Below are positions 11,267 through 17,460 of a DNA stretch of 22,757 nucleotides, one piece after another. Under the pieces are notes generated by a model. It was not told where the DNA came from, ran no database searches, and was given only the letters and a program-made list of their open reading frames with translations. Location of the stretch: positions 1 to 22,757 of the IMG/VR virus record IMGVR_UViG_3300025030_000429, one strand, 5' to 3'. Source of the stretch: a virus. The translations under genes were made by a program, and so were the position numbers. Each line of letters begins with the position of its first letter. Within the stretch, counting starts at the first letter, position 1.

Positions 11267-14005
11267 CTACGGCGCCAGGCAGAACGAGATGATCATCTCG
11301 GCCGCGAAGGCCGGGTCGGCGTCAACCCCCGCGCTCGACACGAGCACATCGAGCTTCGATCCCGCGGCGATGACCGGGGCGTCGATCACATCAGCGCAGG
11401 TCGTCTCGGCCTCGTCGATCGTGCAGGTGAGTACCGTGGACCCACCATCGTCGCGGAGCGTGACGGCCCACGGATCGTTGAGAGCGCCGGGGGCCACGTC
11501 CACGAGGACGCTGAGGTTGTGCGCGGTCAACTCCGTGACGGTCCGATACTGATCCTCGTCCGTTTCCGTCACGCTGAACGACGCGGCGCCCGTCGCGACA
11601 TCCACCGCCGACAGGCTCACGTAGTCGTCGGTGGCGCTCGCCTCGGTTGGGTTGTAGAAGACCGTCACCATCTGGGTGCAGACCGTATCGGCGATCTCGC
11701 TGTCGCCAATCTCTCCATCTCCGATCATGGCCGCCGTCACGATGGCCGTGTCGCCGGTGGTCACGACGGTCCCATCCACGTCGTTCACCGTGTACGTTCG
11801 GTCCGCCGTAAGATCGGCCACAGCGAACGTCCCCACGAACGACCCGGCGCCGCCGCTCGGCGGCGCGAACCCGATCACGTCATCGTTCGCGCCCGCACCC
11901 TCGACCAACAGCTCCACGCCGTGGACGGTAGCCTCTGTAGCCGTCCACTCGTAGTGGGAGGCGCCGCCCGTGCCCTGCGGATAGAAGTACAGGGCGTCGT
12001 TCACGCCGTTCGTGATCGACAGGAACGCATCGGTCGCGCTGTCGATCGCGGGGACCGCCGCAGGGAACGCGGCGGAGGCGCCAACGAACAACATGAGTGC
12101 GTTGTCGTCGTTGGCGGGTCCCGCCTCCGCCGTGATGCGGGAGTAGCCGCGGTAGTCGGGGCCAGCGCCACCGGCCGCGTCATCCGCGTGGTGGAGCAAC
12201 TGAATCCGCGGGTTCGCAGCGGCGCCATCGCCAAGGAGGGCGTCGGGGTCCCCCGCACGGAAGAGGACCATCTTGGCCTGGTCGTTGTCGATCGTGAGGT
12301 CGGCCGCGCCGAAGTCGAGCGTCGTGTTCACGTCTGTTCCGTCGACGCAGGTCACGCAGGCGAGGCCGTCCGCGGCTCCACCTTCTGACGCGCTGCTCGC
12401 GTAGTTGCCGGCGGTATCGGTCCCGAGGTCGATCTGCTCGCACGTAGCGGCTCCCGCGGCTGTCACGCCGCGCGCCCAGGTGGCACCGGCCGGGCAGTCC
12501 TCGCCGTCGGCCGCGAGCCCAACGGCCGTGTCCGCGGCGATGACGTTCGATGCGGCGTCGAGCGTAGCGTTCGTGATCGTCCCGTCTGTCGCCAGATCCA
12601 GACCTGTCGAAGTGATTGTGACCGTGTTCGCGCCACCACCGATAGACACCGCTCCGGTGCTAGTACCGGTAGCGATGTTGACGATGTTGTTGTTGTTGTG
12701 ATTGAGACTCACAACCCCGCCAGCCATCGTGAGTGCGGCGCCCCCAACGATGTTCGCTGCGACGTCGATGCTACCGTCAACCTCCAAAAAATCGGAGACA
12801 TAGACATCTCCGTTGCCGGACGCGCCACTCTCGGCCGTTCCGCTGCCGAAGGATACCATCTGGCCGGTGAGCACAAGCCCAGTACCATCGACCGTGATCG
12901 TGTCGGCGAGTTGCGTACCGTCGATCCCGTCCGCAGCGATTCCGATGTCTCCGGCCACGCTCAGGGTCGCCGGACTGGAGGCCGATACGGCGACGGTGCC
13001 AGCCGCGTTGGGGAAGTTCCATGCGCGGTCGGCCGTCAGGTCGACGGCGGAGAGCGTGCCGGTGAATCGCCCCGCGCCACCTGCCGTTACCACCCACGCA
13101 AGGATGTCGTCGGTCGCCGTCGCGGTCCGTACGTCGGCCGTGCCAAGCACACGGAGCGAGCCCGCCTCCAGGTAGCCGCCCACGTCGAGGCCCTCGGCTC
13201 CGTTCAGCGTGTCCACGCAGATGAAGCCGCTGGCCCCGGTGCTACTCCAGCAGGCCGCCACCGCGTCGTTGTCGTTCGCGAGCCAGTCGATCGAGCCGAC
13301 CGAGGCCATCGCCCCGGTCGTGATGGTGAGCGTCCCCCCCATGCCGAGGTCGGTCACGCCCGACACCGCGCCCGTCGTCGACACGTCCATGCCCGTGGAA
13401 GCGATCTCGACGGTGTTGCTCCCGCCGCCGATCGTGACGGCGGCGTTCGTCGTCCCCGTCCCAAGGTTCGTGGTGAAGTTGCTGGACGCGTTCATGCTCA
13501 CCGTCCCCCCCGTGACGGTCATGCCCGCGGCGCCGGTCATCAGCCCCAGCACGTCGAGCGCGCCATCCGCCTCGAGCGCGTCCGTCACGTACAGGTCCCC
13601 GTCCCCGACGGCCACCTCGGCCGTGCCGGTGCCGTACTTCGTGATTCCGCGGACCGTGAACGTGTCCGTCGCGGCGTTGCCGAGTAGGGTGTTCCCGGTC
13701 GCGGTCAGGTCTGTCACGGTGAGTGCGCCGACCCCCACGACACCGGTCACGTCCAGGTCGCCGTTGATGCACAGGTCGTTCGCGCCCGTTGCGGTTGAGC
13801 ACGCGGTCGTCCCCGTCTGAACGAGTCCCGTGCGCGTGACCGAGAACGTCCGCGTCTCGGAGCTGTTGCGCGCCTCGATCGAGTAGGTGTCGTAGCTCTT
13901 GGGCGTGACGCGCAGCCAGTCCATGTCGGTGGCGTCCGCGTAGACCACGGCCGACACGAGAGCCAGCGTCACCGCGAGCGGGAGCCAGTGCTTGACGTTC
14001 TTCAT
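11267..14005 (-). CDS. repeat-rich fibre or decoration protein with signal peptide (912 aa)
   Basis: Start ATG 14005 has GGAGG six bases upstream. The N-terminus is MKNVKHWLPLAVTLALVSAV with VYA-DAT after it: a basic n-region, a hydrophobic core and an A-x-A-like site, so cleavage after A23 is plausible. The rest is low in charge and rich in Gly, Thr, Ala and Val, with short beta repeats typical of trimeric fibres. Two long repeats (residues 124-213 and 386-476) and two shorter DLTADR-containing repeats (293-341 and 702-750) are visible. The C-terminal 140 residues form a distinct domain with four cysteines. Its position, after the capsid and before the connector, suggests a head fibre or decoration rather than a tail fibre. 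A signal peptide on a virion gene is unusual. A host-surface or secreted role cannot be excluded. Confidence 0.72.
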   Translation of the reverse strand: MKNVKHWLPLAVTLALVSAVVYADATDMDWLRVTPKSYDTYSIEARNSSETRTFSVTRTGLVQTGTTACSTATGANDLCINGDLDVTGVVGVGALTVTDLTATGNTLLGNAATDTFTVRGITKYGTGTAEVAVGDGDLYVTDALEADGALDVLGLMTGAAGMTVTGGTVSMNASSNFTTNLGTGTTNAAVTIGGGSNTVEIASTGMDVSTTGAVSGVTDLGMGGTLTITTGAMASVGSIDWLANDNDAVAACWSSTGASGFICVDTLNGAEGLDVGGYLEAGSLRVLGTADVRTATATDDILAWVVTAGGAGRFTGTLSAVDLTADRAWNFPNAAGTVAVSASSPATLSVAGDIGIAADGIDGTQLADTITVDGTGLVLTGQMVSFGSGTAESGASGNGDVYVSDFLEVDGSIDVAANIVGGAALTMAGGVVSLNHNNNNIVNIATGTSTGAVSIGGGANTVTITSTGLDLATDGTITNATLDAASNVIAADTAVGLAADGEDCPAGATWARGVTAAGAATCEQIDLGTDTAGNYASSASEGGAADGLACVTCVDGTDVNTTLDFGAADLTIDNDQAKMVLFRAGDPDALLGDGAAANPRIQLLHHADDAAGGAGPDYRGYSRITAEAGPANDDNALMLFVGASAAFPAAVPAIDSATDAFLSITNGVNDALYFYPQGTGGASHYEWTATEATVHGVELLVEGAGANDDVIGFAPPSGGAGSFVGTFAVADLTADRTYTVNDVDGTVVTTGDTAIVTAAMIGDGEIGDSEIADTVCTQMVTVFYNPTEASATDDYVSLSAVDVATGAASFSVTETDEDQYRTVTELTAHNLSVLVDVAPGALNDPWAVTLRDDGGSTVLTCTIDEAETTCADVIDAPVIAAGSKLDVLVSSAGVDADPAFAAEMIISFCLAP
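11756..11902 (-). repeat. fibre repeat B, copy 2
   Basis: Encodes residues 702-750 with DDVIGF, GGAGSFVGTFAVADLTADR and GTVVT, aligned residue for residue with the copy at 12983-13129 without gaps. Confidence 0.6.
12578..12850 (-). repeat. fibre repeat A, copy 2 (compositionally different)
   Basis: Encodes residues 386-476, with matching landmarks GNGDVYVSDFLEVDGSIDV, SIGGGANTVTITSTGLDL. Relative to copy 1 it carries one extra residue near the start, an Asn run (NHNNNN), and many more A/T-ending codons such as TCT, TTT, TTG and GGT, so it stands out from its surroundings. Confidence 0.7.
12983..13129 (-). repeat. fibre repeat B, copy 1
   Basis: Encodes residues 293-341 with DDILAW, GGAGRFTGTLSAVDLTADR and a closing GTVAV. 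The DLTADR..(Y/W)..P..GTV motif recurs in many phage fibre proteins as a stem repeat. It pairs with the copy at 11756-11902. Confidence 0.6.
13367..13636 (-). repeat. fibre repeat A, copy 1
   Basis: Encodes residues 124-213 of the fibre protein, running from YGTGTAEVAVGDGDLYVTDA through TIGGGSNTVEIASTGMDV. It aligns along its length with copy 2 at 12578-12850. Base composition is as GC-rich as the rest of the window. Confidence 0.7.
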
Positions 14006-14163: not shown

Positions 14164-16107
14164 TTACGCGACGATCGCGCCCTGGAGCGGGCGGAAGTCG
14201 ACGCAGCCGATGCCGAACGGGAACTTGATCTTCCACTGCTGCTCGTCGTCGGTGAACACGCGGCCCACCGTCGGCGTCGAGTTCAGGAAGATCTCCGGCT
14301 CGGTCTGGTTGTCCAGCACGCCCACCACGATGCCCGGGCGCTTCTGCGGCGACGCAGCGCCGTAGTAGTTGTTCGTGTCGGCCCGGAGGTACGGCGACAG
14401 CACCACCTCGTACTGCTGGTAGTGGATGTTCTTCGCGTTGTTCGCCGTGTGCGGGAGCTGCTCGGTGTTGACCAGCTCGAAGGCAGTGGCCTCGAGGTTG
14501 ACCGGCACGATCAGGACCTCGGGGAAGAGCCCGATCGCCTGGAGCGCCTGCGGGTCGGTCTGCGCCCACATCTGCCGGCGGAAGATGTTGAGCCCCTCGG
14601 CCGACAGCGCCGTCGCGCTGAGGTTGTTGTGTGTCGCGTGGTACAGCACGAGGCCCGCGCCATCGCCGGCGTAGACCGTGTCGTTGATCGCGGCCGTGTA
14701 GCCGATGAGCGAGTCTGCGCACGCCTGCTCGATCGTGCGGAGGCCCGCGTCGCCGAGCTGGGCCAGCACGCGTTGGATGAGCCCGAGGTCGTCGTTGCGG
14801 AGCGCCATCTCGGTGACGCCGAGCACGTTGCCGCGGCGGGCCACCGTGACGTTCGTCGACTCCTGCGTGCGCACCGTGTTGCCGATCAGGTCCGTGTAGG
14901 TGGTCTGATCGTTGGCGAGCGTGCTGAGCGCGGGCATCACGCCGTAGCTCAGGTAGGCGACGGCCTTGAAGTCCTTGTGCGACTCGACCTTCGTGAACTT
15001 CGTCCACGTCGGCGGGATCGCGCGGAAGGCCGTGAGCACGGCGCGGTTGGCGCTCGACGACAGCGCCGTATTGTAGATCGACTGGTTGACCGTGATCGCC
15101 TCCGTCGCGCGGCGCGACGTCGCGGGGAGCACGCCGCGGATCATCCGCTCGTACAGCGGGGTCATGCGCTCGTGGTGCGACTCGTGGGCGCGCACGAACT
15201 CGCGGCCGTCGGCCGCCGCGGGCGAGTAGCCCGAGACGACCATGCACAGCTCGCCCCAGGACTGCGGGGCGCGCACGGCCGCGTACCGCTTGCGCGCCTC
15301 GGCGAGCGTGCCTCCGCCGACGAAGAGACCGCGCACCGCGTCCTCCTGCTGGCCGTGCAGGACCGCCTCCGCGACGCGCCCGCGCGCGCGCGGCTGCATG
15401 CCGAAGTCGTACGGGAGCTTGTTCGGATCGAGGCCGAACGCCTTGTCCACCGCGATCGCCTTGATCTCGTTCTCGTCGATTCCCATCTCGACGGCGCGCG
15501 CGTGCCGGCTCGCGCTCCAGCCGAGGTGCGGGGAGTCCTTCGGGGCCGCGGCGGCGAGCTTCGCGACGCGCTTGATCGCGGCCTCGACGACGGCGGCCTC
15601 GACGACGCGGCCGGCGAACTCCTCGCGGAGCGCGTCGCGGTAGGCGTCGGGGAGCATCGCCGCGTCGATGAGCGCGGCCGTGCGGGCCGCCGCGGTCGCG
15701 GCCATCTCGCGGGCCTCGGCGTCGGCCGCGAGCTTCTCGAGCCGGGCGACCGCCTCGCTCGCGCGCTGCTCCGTCGCCCCCGCCGCCTCGGTGTCCCCCG
15801 CGGGGGGCGGAGCGACGGGCGCGTCGCCGGGCGCCATCGCGGACATGACCTCGATGCACGTCTCGAGGTAGCCGACGCACTCGTCCATCTTGCCTGCGGT
15901 GCATGCGTCGAGCGCCTTCTGACACAGCGTGGCGAGTGCGGTCATGTCGTGCCCCGCCTCCTTCGCGCGCGTCGCGAGGTTCGCCTTGAGCACTTCGAGC
16001 AGCGCGGCGTCGGTCGCGACGTTCTCGACCGCGCGCCCCGCCGACTCCGCGCCGCGGAGCAGCGCGGCGAGGATCTTCGTCGCCAGGTCCTTGATCTTGG
16101 GATTCAT
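14164..16107 (-). CDS. possible internal-start product: scaffold domain plus major capsid (647 aa)
   Basis: Inside the fused frame, ATG 16107 is preceded by GGAAGGA with five bases of spacing, a stronger ribosome site than that of the full-length start. The ATG falls just after the last conserved protease strand (residues 170-190) and before the helical scaffold-like domain, exactly where a separate capsid gene would begin. A ribosome starting here would make the capsid precursor without the protease, giving many capsid copies per protease copy, comparable in logic to lambda C and its nested Nu3 scaffold start. This second product is inferred from sequence only; the two products share the same frame and stop. 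Confidence 0.5.
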   Translation of the reverse strand: MNPKIKDLATKILAALLRGAESAGRAVENVATDAALLEVLKANLATRAKEAGHDMTALATLCQKALDACTAGKMDECVGYLETCIEVMSAMAPGDAPVAPPPAGDTEAAGATEQRASEAVARLEKLAADAEAREMAATAAARTAALIDAAMLPDAYRDALREEFAGRVVEAAVVEAAIKRVAKLAAAAPKDSPHLGWSASRHARAVEMGIDENEIKAIAVDKAFGLDPNKLPYDFGMQPRARGRVAEAVLHGQQEDAVRGLFVGGGTLAEARKRYAAVRAPQSWGELCMVVSGYSPAAADGREFVRAHESHHERMTPLYERMIRGVLPATSRRATEAITVNQSIYNTALSSSANRAVLTAFRAIPPTWTKFTKVESHKDFKAVAYLSYGVMPALSTLANDQTTYTDLIGNTVRTQESTNVTVARRGNVLGVTEMALRNDDLGLIQRVLAQLGDAGLRTIEQACADSLIGYTAAINDTVYAGDGAGLVLYHATHNNLSATALSAEGLNIFRRQMWAQTDPQALQAIGLFPEVLIVPVNLEATAFELVNTEQLPHTANNAKNIHYQQYEVVLSPYLRADTNNYYGAASPQKRPGIVVGVLDNQTEPEIFLNSTPTVGRVFTDDEQQWKIKFPFGIGCVDFRPLQGAIVA

Positions 16108-16716
16108 GTCGGTCCTTCCGTGCTCTCCGGGTTGAGACTGCCTCGCTGCTACCAATCGCGTGAAACAGCCGCCGGCCGCCGGGTCGTGAACGATGTCCAC
16201 GCTCCGCACGTGCCGCACGGCGTCCACAAACATCACCTGATGCCCCTGCGCGATTCCAGCGTGACTCTCCACGTCGACATCGACGGAGAGTCCGATGCGC
16301 GCGCCTTCGCCGCCATCGAGCCAGCCCGCCGCGGCGTACTCGCGCAGACGCTCGGCGATGACCGCGCACGACTCGAACACCACGAGGTCCGCTGTGAGCG
16401 CGAGCTTGCCGTCGTCGCCGCGCTCGGCCGTCACGTTTTCGTAGCGGCCGACCCAGTTGCCGATCACGCCCGGGAGCACCTCGAACGCCTCACCGGGCAA
16501 GTGAATGATCTTCTCGCCGTACTGGTAATAGCCCGCGGGCTTCGCCTCGAACATGCTCGCCGCGGCGTCGAGCGTCGATGCCGGCCAGAAGCGGCCGTTG
16601 AGCGACAGCCCCTCGCGGATGAGCGTCACGCGCCAGCGCGCGCCCGTCTTCGCGGCAAGGTCCTCCGCCGACGCGACGGCAAACCCCGCGAGGAACTCCG
16701 TCACGCGCTGGATCAC
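14164..16716 (-). CDS. prohead protease / scaffold / major capsid protein fusion (850 aa)
   Basis: One uninterrupted frame appears to encode three head-assembly functions. Start GTG 16716 overlaps the upstream stop as GTGA. Residues 1-190 resemble a prohead serine protease: EGLSLNGRFWP (36-46), probable catalytic H72 in IIHLPG, probable nucleophile S144 in ARIGLSVDVD, and the closing strand VRSVDIVHDPA (170-180). Residues 204-395 are helical and rich in Ala and Glu with a Pro-rich break near 298-310, like a delta/scaffold domain. From about 480 to 850 is the HK97-fold capsid, with VTEMALRND, DGAGLVLYHATHNNLS (685-700), LIVPVNLEATAFELV (735-749) and a closing FGIGCVDFRPLQGA. Such fused protease-capsid genes are known in other phages. 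An internal start at M204 may yield a 647-residue capsid without protease. The third triad residue is not assigned. Confidence 0.87.
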   Translation of the reverse strand: MIQRVTEFLAGFAVASAEDLAAKTGARWRVTLIREGLSLNGRFWPASTLDAAASMFEAKPAGYYQYGEKIIHLPGEAFEVLPGVIGNWVGRYENVTAERGDDGKLALTADLVVFESCAVIAERLREYAAAGWLDGGEGARIGLSVDVDVESHAGIAQGHQVMFVDAVRHVRSVDIVHDPAAGGCFTRLVAARQSQPGEHGRTDMNPKIKDLATKILAALLRGAESAGRAVENVATDAALLEVLKANLATRAKEAGHDMTALATLCQKALDACTAGKMDECVGYLETCIEVMSAMAPGDAPVAPPPAGDTEAAGATEQRASEAVARLEKLAADAEAREMAATAAARTAALIDAAMLPDAYRDALREEFAGRVVEAAVVEAAIKRVAKLAAAAPKDSPHLGWSASRHARAVEMGIDENEIKAIAVDKAFGLDPNKLPYDFGMQPRARGRVAEAVLHGQQEDAVRGLFVGGGTLAEARKRYAAVRAPQSWGELCMVVSGYSPAAADGREFVRAHESHHERMTPLYERMIRGVLPATSRRATEAITVNQSIYNTALSSSANRAVLTAFRAIPPTWTKFTKVESHKDFKAVAYLSYGVMPALSTLANDQTTYTDLIGNTVRTQESTNVTVARRGNVLGVTEMALRNDDLGLIQRVLAQLGDAGLRTIEQACADSLIGYTAAINDTVYAGDGAGLVLYHATHNNLSATALSAEGLNIFRRQMWAQTDPQALQAIGLFPEVLIVPVNLEATAFELVNTEQLPHTANNAKNIHYQQYEVVLSPYLRADTNNYYGAASPQKRPGIVVGVLDNQTEPEIFLNSTPTVGRVFTDDEQQWKIKFPFGIGCVDFRPLQGAIVA
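16113..16119 (-). promoter_or_regulatory. internal ribosome binding site in the protease-capsid gene
   Basis: The minus strand reads GGAAGGA here, five bases before an in-frame ATG at 16107. It lies at the boundary between the protease part and the scaffold/capsid part of the fused gene, where no start would be needed if only the full-length protein were made. Confidence 0.5.
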
Positions 16717-17117
16717 GACGCGCCTCCCGCGATGCGGCCAACCGCCGCCGTGGCTTCGTCGACCGCGTGCGTGAGCGTCGCCACCTGCGCGCGCAGGCTC
16801 GCGGCCTCGGCCGTCGCCGTGGCGTGTTGTGAGCGCAGCCCTTCCAGCGTCTCCGCGAGCGCGCGTGACTCCTTCGTCACGGCCGCAGGCTCGATCGCCA
16901 GCACGGCCACGCCGTGCTCGTCGAGCCACGCCTTCGCCTCGGCGGTCGTGAACTCGCCCGCGTCGAAACGGTACGACTGCGCGACCACGTACTCCGACCC
17001 GAGCGGTCGACCGAACACGAGGTCGACGCCGGCCGCGATCGGCTTGCGGCGGAAGGACTCCGGCTCGAACTCGCCGGGGTCCTTCACGCGGGCCGTGTGC
17101 TCGGTCGGGTAGGGCAT
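16713..17117 (-). CDS. small virion-region protein with coiled-coil C-terminus (134 aa)
   Basis: ATG 17117 is chosen because the frame above it is Arg-rich shadow overlapping the previous gene; the start lies four bases after that gene's stop. The product begins MPYPTEHTARVKDPGEFEPE and has VDLVFGRPLGSEYVVAQSYRF, then AEAKAWLDEHG. This PYPxEHxxR...FG...Q..RF...A..WL pattern is one I associate with a small domain found beside or inside phage prohead protease genes. A predicted coiled coil covers about residues 85-130. The stop overlaps the GTG of the protease-capsid gene as GTGA, so the two are probably coupled. Role is probably in capsid assembly or maturation; uncertain. Confidence 0.65.
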   Translation of the reverse strand: MPYPTEHTARVKDPGEFEPESFRRKPIAAGVDLVFGRPLGSEYVVAQSYRFDAGEFTTAEAKAWLDEHGVAVLAIEPAAVTKESRALAETLEGLRSQHATATAEAASLRAQVATLTHAVDEATAAVGRIAGGAS

Positions 17118-17121
17118 CGCG

Positions 17122-17460
17122 TTACTTCTTGCCCTCGTCCTTGCCGCCCTTCTTCTCGGCCGCGTCGAGCGCGGCCTGGTCGAACACGTGCCGCTGCCCA
17201 TGGAGCGTGACGACGGAGAGCTCCACGTCGCCGGTGATCGGGTTCTCGCCCCAGCGGAACCCGGCCACGTAGTCGGCCGTCACGCCCTTGCGCTCCGAGA
17301 AGTCAGCGCGGTGCGCGTCCTTCTCGCCGACGCGCCCGCGCGGCTCGCGGAAGGTGAGCTTCGACAGGAGCGCCGCGAACCGCGGGTCGGCCGCGACGGT
17401 CTTTGCGCGCGCCTTCGCGCTGAGTGCGGCGAGCTGCTCCTTCGTGTACGCGTCGGCCAT
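17122..17460 (-). CDS. hypothetical virion-region protein (112 aa)
   Basis: Start ATG 17460 has a clear GAGGAG seven bases upstream. The product is 112 residues, begins MADAYTKEQLAALSAKARAK with a charged helix, contains FREPRGRVGEKDAHRADF in the middle and a beta-like segment ending VTLHGQRHVFDQAAL, and finishes with a Lys-rich tail (KKGGKDEGKK) unusual in this Arg-rich genome. I do not recognise a family. Its place between the minor head protein and the protease-capsid gene suggests a small capsid accessory, for example a scaffold or decoration component, but this is inferred from position only. Confidence 0.65.
   Translation of the reverse strand: MADAYTKEQLAALSAKARAKTVAADPRFAALLSKLTFREPRGRVGEKDAHRADFSERKGVTADYVAGFRWGENPITGDVELSVVTLHGQRHVFDQAALDAAEKKGGKDEGKK

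What the first reader, a model, noticed from the sequence alone, without database searches (positions are those of the whole stretch)
14164..16716. Protease, scaffold and capsid fused in one frame, with a strong internal start that could separate them
The frame runs without a stop from a prohead-protease-like domain (H72, S144) through a helical scaffold-like region into the major capsid domain. GGAAGGA five bases before ATG 16107 lies exactly at the protease/scaffold boundary, while the full-length start is a GTG relying on overlap with the upstream gene. Fused protease-capsid genes are known. The inference is that two initiation sites set a low protease to high capsid ratio from one gene, with the capsid released by self-cleavage in the minor form.
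Basis: partly seen in the sequence, partly recalled or inferred. Interest (0 to 1): 0.6.

Follow-up and report, generated by a model that had tools for sequence, protein, structure and literature searches.

The report
Hidden second start in capsid gene
A phage gene that joins a protease, a scaffold and the capsid protein in one reading frame carries a second translation start just after the protease, and the same hidden start is found in nearly all of about 150 distantly related fused genes, which suggests that such phages make many protease-free capsid subunits and fewer protease-bearing ones from one gene.

Summary
One open frame (850 aa, minus strand, GTG 16716 to TAA 14164) joins a prohead-protease-like domain (residues ~25-196), a helical region and an HK97-type capsid domain (545-843). 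ATG 16107 (codon 204), with GGAAGGA five bases upstream, lies at the protease/scaffold boundary. I tested the internal start against about 300 fused relatives. An in-frame ATG with a Shine-Dalgarno at this boundary occurs in 59 of 65 representatives with three protease types (60 of 99 boundary ATGs have an SD; 30 of 831 other internal ATGs; p 4e-45), and in 73 of 83 representatives of the window's own protease type; nine of those ten exceptions have a GTG/TTG or a slightly differently placed ATG with an SD. The site is also depleted of mRNA structure (window: rank 9 of 780 codons; relatives p 6e-13). The closest relative (L282) keeps it. A low protease-to-capsid ratio is plausible, not shown. 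It works like the Mu I/Z and lambda C/Nu3 nested scaffolds, with the capsid fused on as in Gifsy-2. No protein data were available.

The parts
14164..16716 (-). Fused protease-scaffold-capsid frame, 850 aa, GTG start, TAA stop
   Evidence: homology
16723..16728 (-). GGGAGG, Shine-Dalgarno of the full-length start, 6 bases before GTG 16716
   Evidence: -10.3 kcal/mol duplex
16714..16716 (-). GTG, full-length start; overlaps the TGA stop of the upstream gene (GTGA)
   Evidence: similar distance from the protease domain as the ATG start of L282
16129..16644 (-). Prohead-protease-like domain, residues 25-196
16501..16503 (-). H72, probable catalytic histidine
   Evidence: identical in Mae-JY22 and aligned to His in L282; role inferred
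16285..16287 (-). S144, probable catalytic serine
   Evidence: invariant in 16 relatives; role inferred
16113..16119 (-). GGAAGGA, Shine-Dalgarno of the internal start
   Evidence: synonymous-shuffle p 0.009
16105..16107 (-). ATG codon 204, internal start at the protease/scaffold boundary
15121..16107 (-). Scaffold-like helical region, residues 204 to about 532 (right border approximate)
   Evidence: helices in the model (low to moderate confidence); border from the separate capsid gene of L019
14167..15120 (-). Major capsid (HK97-type, Phage_capsid_4) domain, residues about 533-850
15943..15945 (-). ATG codon 258 with AAGGAGG (15957-15963) at 11-base spacing; probably not a start
   Evidence: not conserved in L282; structured
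16713..17201 (-). Upstream gene (162 aa) whose stop overlaps the full-length start

Best explanation
The gene is a tripartite capsid gene with two in-frame translation starts. Initiation at GTG 16716 gives a full-length protease-scaffold-capsid chain; initiation at ATG 16107 gives a 647-residue scaffold-capsid chain without protease. Both co-assemble through their shared scaffold and capsid parts, so a limited number of protease domains is built into the prohead covalently; these then cut the scaffold off all subunits, and off themselves, during maturation. Shown here by sequence: the fusion, the boundary start with SD, its conservation and its low mRNA structure. Inferred: that both products are made, their ratio, co-assembly and trans cleavage.
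For: Boundary ATG with SD in 59/65 representatives (<70% identity) with ClpP-like, S78-like and window-type proteases; 60 of 99 boundary ATGs have an SD against 30 of 831 other internal ATGs, odds ratio 41, p 4e-45. Single-linkage clusters at 50%: 34 of 39; at 40%: 9 of 9. Closest relative L282 (40% id) aligns its ATG with AGGAG to codon 204. The window's SD uses rare codons GGA AGG, p 0.009. mRNA opening cost at codon 204 is 5.7 kcal/mol, rank 9 of 780, median 16.3; 72 relatives have a median 7th percentile, p 6e-13. Unfused relatives (L008, L083, L189, L198) start their capsid gene with an SD at the corresponding place.
Against: No protein, ribosome-profiling or genetic data. In this window the full-length GTG has the stronger SD, so the direction of the ratio is not certain. 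The linker at the boundary could be unstructured for protein reasons. A synonymous-shuffle test over the first family set, combined across genes by Fisher's method, was not significant (p 0.13), because the amino acids of the linker (K, E, G, R) already encode much of the SD. Some fusions lack any SD there (L037, L074, L084, L287). The scaffold N-terminus of the window has no clear sequence match to distant relatives.
Confidence: 0.82

Rival explanations
1. The internal start is a relic: protease and scaffold-capsid were once adjacent genes, the stop between them was lost, and the old ribosome site remains without use; only the full-length chain is made and processed.
For: Unfused relatives have a capsid gene with its own SD at the same place (L008, L083, L189, L198), and one lineage (L041) has the two halves in different frames.
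Against: The site persists in fusions with less than 50% and 40% identity (34/39 and 9/9 clusters), with start codon changed to GTG or TTG but SD kept, and with mRNA structure kept low. An unused site should decay.
Confidence: 0.1
2. The SD-like string and ATG are a by-product of the linker's amino acids (Lys, Glu, Gly, Arg, Met) and carry no translational role.
For: Synonymous shuffles already give an SD at about half of the boundaries (33.4 of 65 expected).
Against: Observed 59 of 65; the string occurs in all three codon phases (37, 17, 5); in the window it needs two rare codons (p 0.009); over most of the rest of the genes observed SDs do not exceed expectation.
Confidence: 0.05
3. The functional internal start of the window is ATG 15945 (codon 258, AAGGAGG), not ATG 16107.
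For: Stronger SD (-11.7 kcal/mol); its distance to the conserved downstream 'LP' motif (alignment) is nearer that of relatives.
Against: 11-base spacing; SD expected from the coding (0.95 of shuffles); not present in L282, whereas codon 204 is; structured mRNA, opening cost 14.1; well past the protease end, where relatives mostly have their start within about -8 to +20 codons.
Confidence: 0.05

Closest known systems
Gifsy-2 tripartite capsid gene and NCBIfam NF045540/NF045541 prohead protease/major capsid fusion proteins
   Same: One frame with N-terminal protease, middle scaffold-like region and C-terminal HK97-type capsid (Gifsy-2 architecture from memory; title and reference seen); the C-terminal part of the window matches both NCBIfam models.
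   Different: The window scores far below the curated cut-offs (142 of 525 and 126 of 475 bits) and its protease is another type. Whether the Gifsy-2 work (Virology 2010, 402:355) describes an internal start could not be checked; the paper is not held.
Phage Mu I/Z and D3112-like PaMx73 protease/scaffold nested genes (PMC4378225)
   Same: In-frame start with SD inside the protease gene gives the scaffold; spacing about 8-9 bases.
   Different: There the major head subunit is a separate gene; here the capsid is in the same frame. The arrangement with a separate capsid exists among the window's own relatives (L019, L346).
Lambda C/Nu3 (from memory)
   Same: Nested in-frame scaffold start within the protease gene.
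   Different: Capsid E is a separate gene; lambda C is a ClpP-like protease.
Microcystis phage Mae-JY22 fused gene (PP438414, XAI95674)
   Same: Similar gene order and the same protease and capsid types, fused; ATG with GGAG at the boundary.
   Different: 771 aa, shorter scaffold; annotated as hypothetical protein.

Membership tests
Tripartite protease-scaffold-capsid fusion (Gifsy-2 kind) | Single frame with protease N-terminal and HK97-type capsid C-terminal | tested here: met
NCBIfam NF045540/NF045541 fusion families | Curated score cut-off of the fusion models | tested here: not met
   Only residues 532-844 match, 142 of 525 and 126 of 475 bits; so it is not a member of these two curated families
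Nested in-frame scaffold start (Mu I/Z, lambda C/Nu3) | In-frame start codon with SD at the protease/scaffold boundary, conserved | tested here: met
Nested in-frame scaffold start (Mu I/Z, lambda C/Nu3) | Internal product made in vivo | not testable with these tools
   needs proteomics or ribosome profiling
Nested in-frame scaffold start (Mu I/Z, lambda C/Nu3) | Capsid encoded by a separate gene | tested here: not met
   Capsid is in the same frame; it works like these systems but is not a member
Prohead protease of T4 gp21 kind (Pfam Peptidase_S77) | Profile match | tested here: inconclusive
   Window none; 3 of 16 relatives, best 7e-5; PHROG head maturation protease 4e-5 for the window
Prohead protease of T4 gp21 kind (Pfam Peptidase_S77) | Fold match to a solved prohead protease | tested here: inconclusive
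   Model pLDDT 73; no PDB match below E 0.001
Phage_capsid_4 (PF25209) capsid | Profile score above curated cut-off | tested here: met
   96 bits, cut-off 27

The most novel reading that the evidence does not exclude
A second in-frame start between protease and scaffold is a general rule of fused protease-capsid genes across different protease types, so that these phages set the number of protease domains per prohead by the ratio of two starts on one gene and build the protease into the shell as a covalent minor capsid subunit.
Probability: 0.65. Interest if true: 0.65.

Novelty: new variant of a known kind. Interest (0 to 1): 0.57.

Why it matters
Fusing protease to capsid should force one protease per subunit, which phages with separate genes avoid. 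A conserved second start would solve this for a large, mostly metagenomic class of phages, would mean that annotated 'fusion proteins' hide a second, probably major, product, and gives a cheap test (one synonymous SD change) of how protease dose controls head maturation.

Tried and rejected
Single-protein search of viral contigs found no relative; alignments were needed. Fisher combination of synonymous-shuffle p values over the first set was not significant; comparison with other internal ATGs, start-codon swaps and mRNA structure were used in addition. Scaffold N-terminus similarity did not discriminate codon 204 from 258; an N-terminal residue profile favoured 204 only weakly. Protease fold search gave nothing significant, and the scaffold-capsid model was poor (pLDDT 51) and is used only for helicity. 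I first counted L292 and L296 as having a separate capsid gene; L292 is a fusion interrupted by TAG and L296 is fused with a second capsid-like gene. Profile comparison of the window's protease type with the S78 type was weak (probability 49%). Literature searches found no description of an internal start in fused protease-capsid genes, but the key Gifsy-2 paper is not held.

Full report
What is there. The window is a 22,757-base virus record from IMG/VR, 70.7% G+C, with a head-and-tail gene run on the minus strand: terminase large subunit, portal, Mu F-like protein, two small genes, the fused frame, then connector and tail genes. The frame GTG 16716 to TAA 14164 is open for 850 codons. Residues 545-843 match Pfam Phage_capsid_4 at 6e-27 and the C-terminal parts of the two NCBIfam protease/capsid fusion models. 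Residues 25-196 match the N-terminal part of a fused gene of Microcystis phage Mae-JY22 and PHROG 'head maturation protease' at 4e-5; 13 of 16 relatives match that family and three match Pfam Peptidase_S77, the T4 gp21 kind. H72 and S144 are identical in Mae-JY22 and S144 is invariant in 16 relatives. The region between protease and capsid is predicted helical, with modest confidence.

The two starts. The full-length GTG is not without a ribosome site: GGGAGG lies six bases before it and pairs better with the anti-SD than GGAAGGA does. However, in a simple folding model the region around GTG 16716 costs 14.6 kcal/mol to open and that around ATG 16107 only 5.7, the ninth lowest of 780 codons of this very G+C-rich gene, whose median is 16.3. 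The GGA and AGG codons are rare in the window's genes; synonymous shuffles give as good an SD there in 0.9% of trials.

Conservation, all protease types. Searches of viral contigs, genome contigs and phage records gave 190 fused genes, 65 representatives below 70% identity, with ClpP-like, S78-like and window-type proteases. 59 of 65 have an ATG with SD within -5 to +62 codons of the protease end (33.4 expected from synonymous shuffles). Of ATGs 0-60 codons past the protease, 60 of 99 have an SD; of other internal ATGs, 30 of 831 (odds ratio 41, p 4e-45). Sequences are not fully independent, so I also clustered by single linkage: 34 of 39 clusters at 50% identity and 9 of 9 at 40% have the site.

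Conservation, the window's own protease type. Further scans gave 152 fused genes, 83 representatives below 60% identity: 73 have the ATG with SD, and in 66 it is the strongest internal ATG-SD of the gene. Of the ten exceptions, L238, L249, L310 and L334 have GTG and L350 has TTG with a strong SD at the place; L242, L284 and L325 have an ATG with an SD at 11-base spacing, L255 an ATG with SD two codons outside my limit; only L287 lacks an SD. A start codon that changes among ATG, GTG and TTG while the SD stays is what initiation predicts and what a conserved methionine residue does not. In 72 representatives the site lies at the median 7th percentile of mRNA opening cost of its own gene (p 6e-13); an unstructured linker could contribute to this.

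The closest relative. L282 (40% identical over 324 residues, contig ends in the scaffold) aligns its internal ATG, preceded by AGGAG, with codon 204 of the window, and keeps the AGG arginine codon in the SD. The competing ATG 15945 (codon 258, AAGGAGG at 11-base spacing) is absent from L282, its SD is what the codons give anyway (0.95 of shuffles), and it sits in structured RNA. So 16107 is the better candidate.

Fusion and its alternatives. Relatives with a separate capsid gene exist. L008, L083, L189 and L198 begin the scaffold-capsid gene with an SD at the place of the internal start. L019 and L346 have protease(-scaffold) and capsid as separate genes, and L019 keeps a candidate start between protease and scaffold (ATG with GGAGG at 11-base spacing), the Mu I/Z layout. 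For Mu and for the D3112-like phage PaMx73 the in-frame scaffold start within the protease gene is described (PMC4378225). The window's gene therefore combines two known ideas: nested scaffold start and tripartite fusion.

Mechanism. Most likely both starts are used; scaffold-capsid chains and fewer full-length chains co-assemble, and the built-in protease domains clear the scaffold of all chains. The ratio is inferred: across the 65 representatives the internal SD is stronger than the best candidate full-length SD in 48, but in this window it is weaker, with lower mRNA structure in compensation. Note that the internal start does not free the capsid: about 330 residues of scaffold remain to be removed in both products.

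Limits. All evidence is from sequence. Anti-SD energies assume the standard 16S tail; the host is unknown. The folding calculation ignores translating ribosomes. Literature search was limited to the held library; the Gifsy-2 paper could not be read, so priority for an internal start in tripartite genes is open.

Noticed in passing
window 11267-13999 (-): A 910-aa frame directly after the capsid gene begins with a signal-peptide-like stretch (MKNVKHWLPLAVTLALVSAVVYA) and is rich in Gly/Thr/Asp/Ala; no Pfam or PHROG family. Unusual place for a seemingly exported protein.
   Followed up: partly
L350, L238, L249, L310, L334: Internal start codon at the protease/scaffold boundary is TTG or GTG instead of ATG while a strong SD is kept.
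   Followed up: yes
L292:2660-2662: Fused frame interrupted by an in-frame TAG near the scaffold/capsid border, with the capsid frame continuing directly and no good start codon; readthrough, reassigned stop or error.
   Followed up: partly
L296:5496-6608: Genome with a fused protease-scaffold-capsid gene followed by a second capsid-like frame.
   Followed up: no
L041:3557-5107: Protease and capsid halves of a ClpP-type fusion lie in different frames; capsid part has its own AAGGAGG-ATG. Natural split or sequencing error.
   Followed up: no
L100-L179: In enteric mEp043-like fusions the GAGGA before the boundary ATG is unchanged in all variants seen while neighbouring codons vary.
   Followed up: partly
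window 15943-15963 (-): AAGGAGG eleven bases before ATG 15945 inside the scaffold region; best anti-SD match in the gene but probably incidental.
   Followed up: yes
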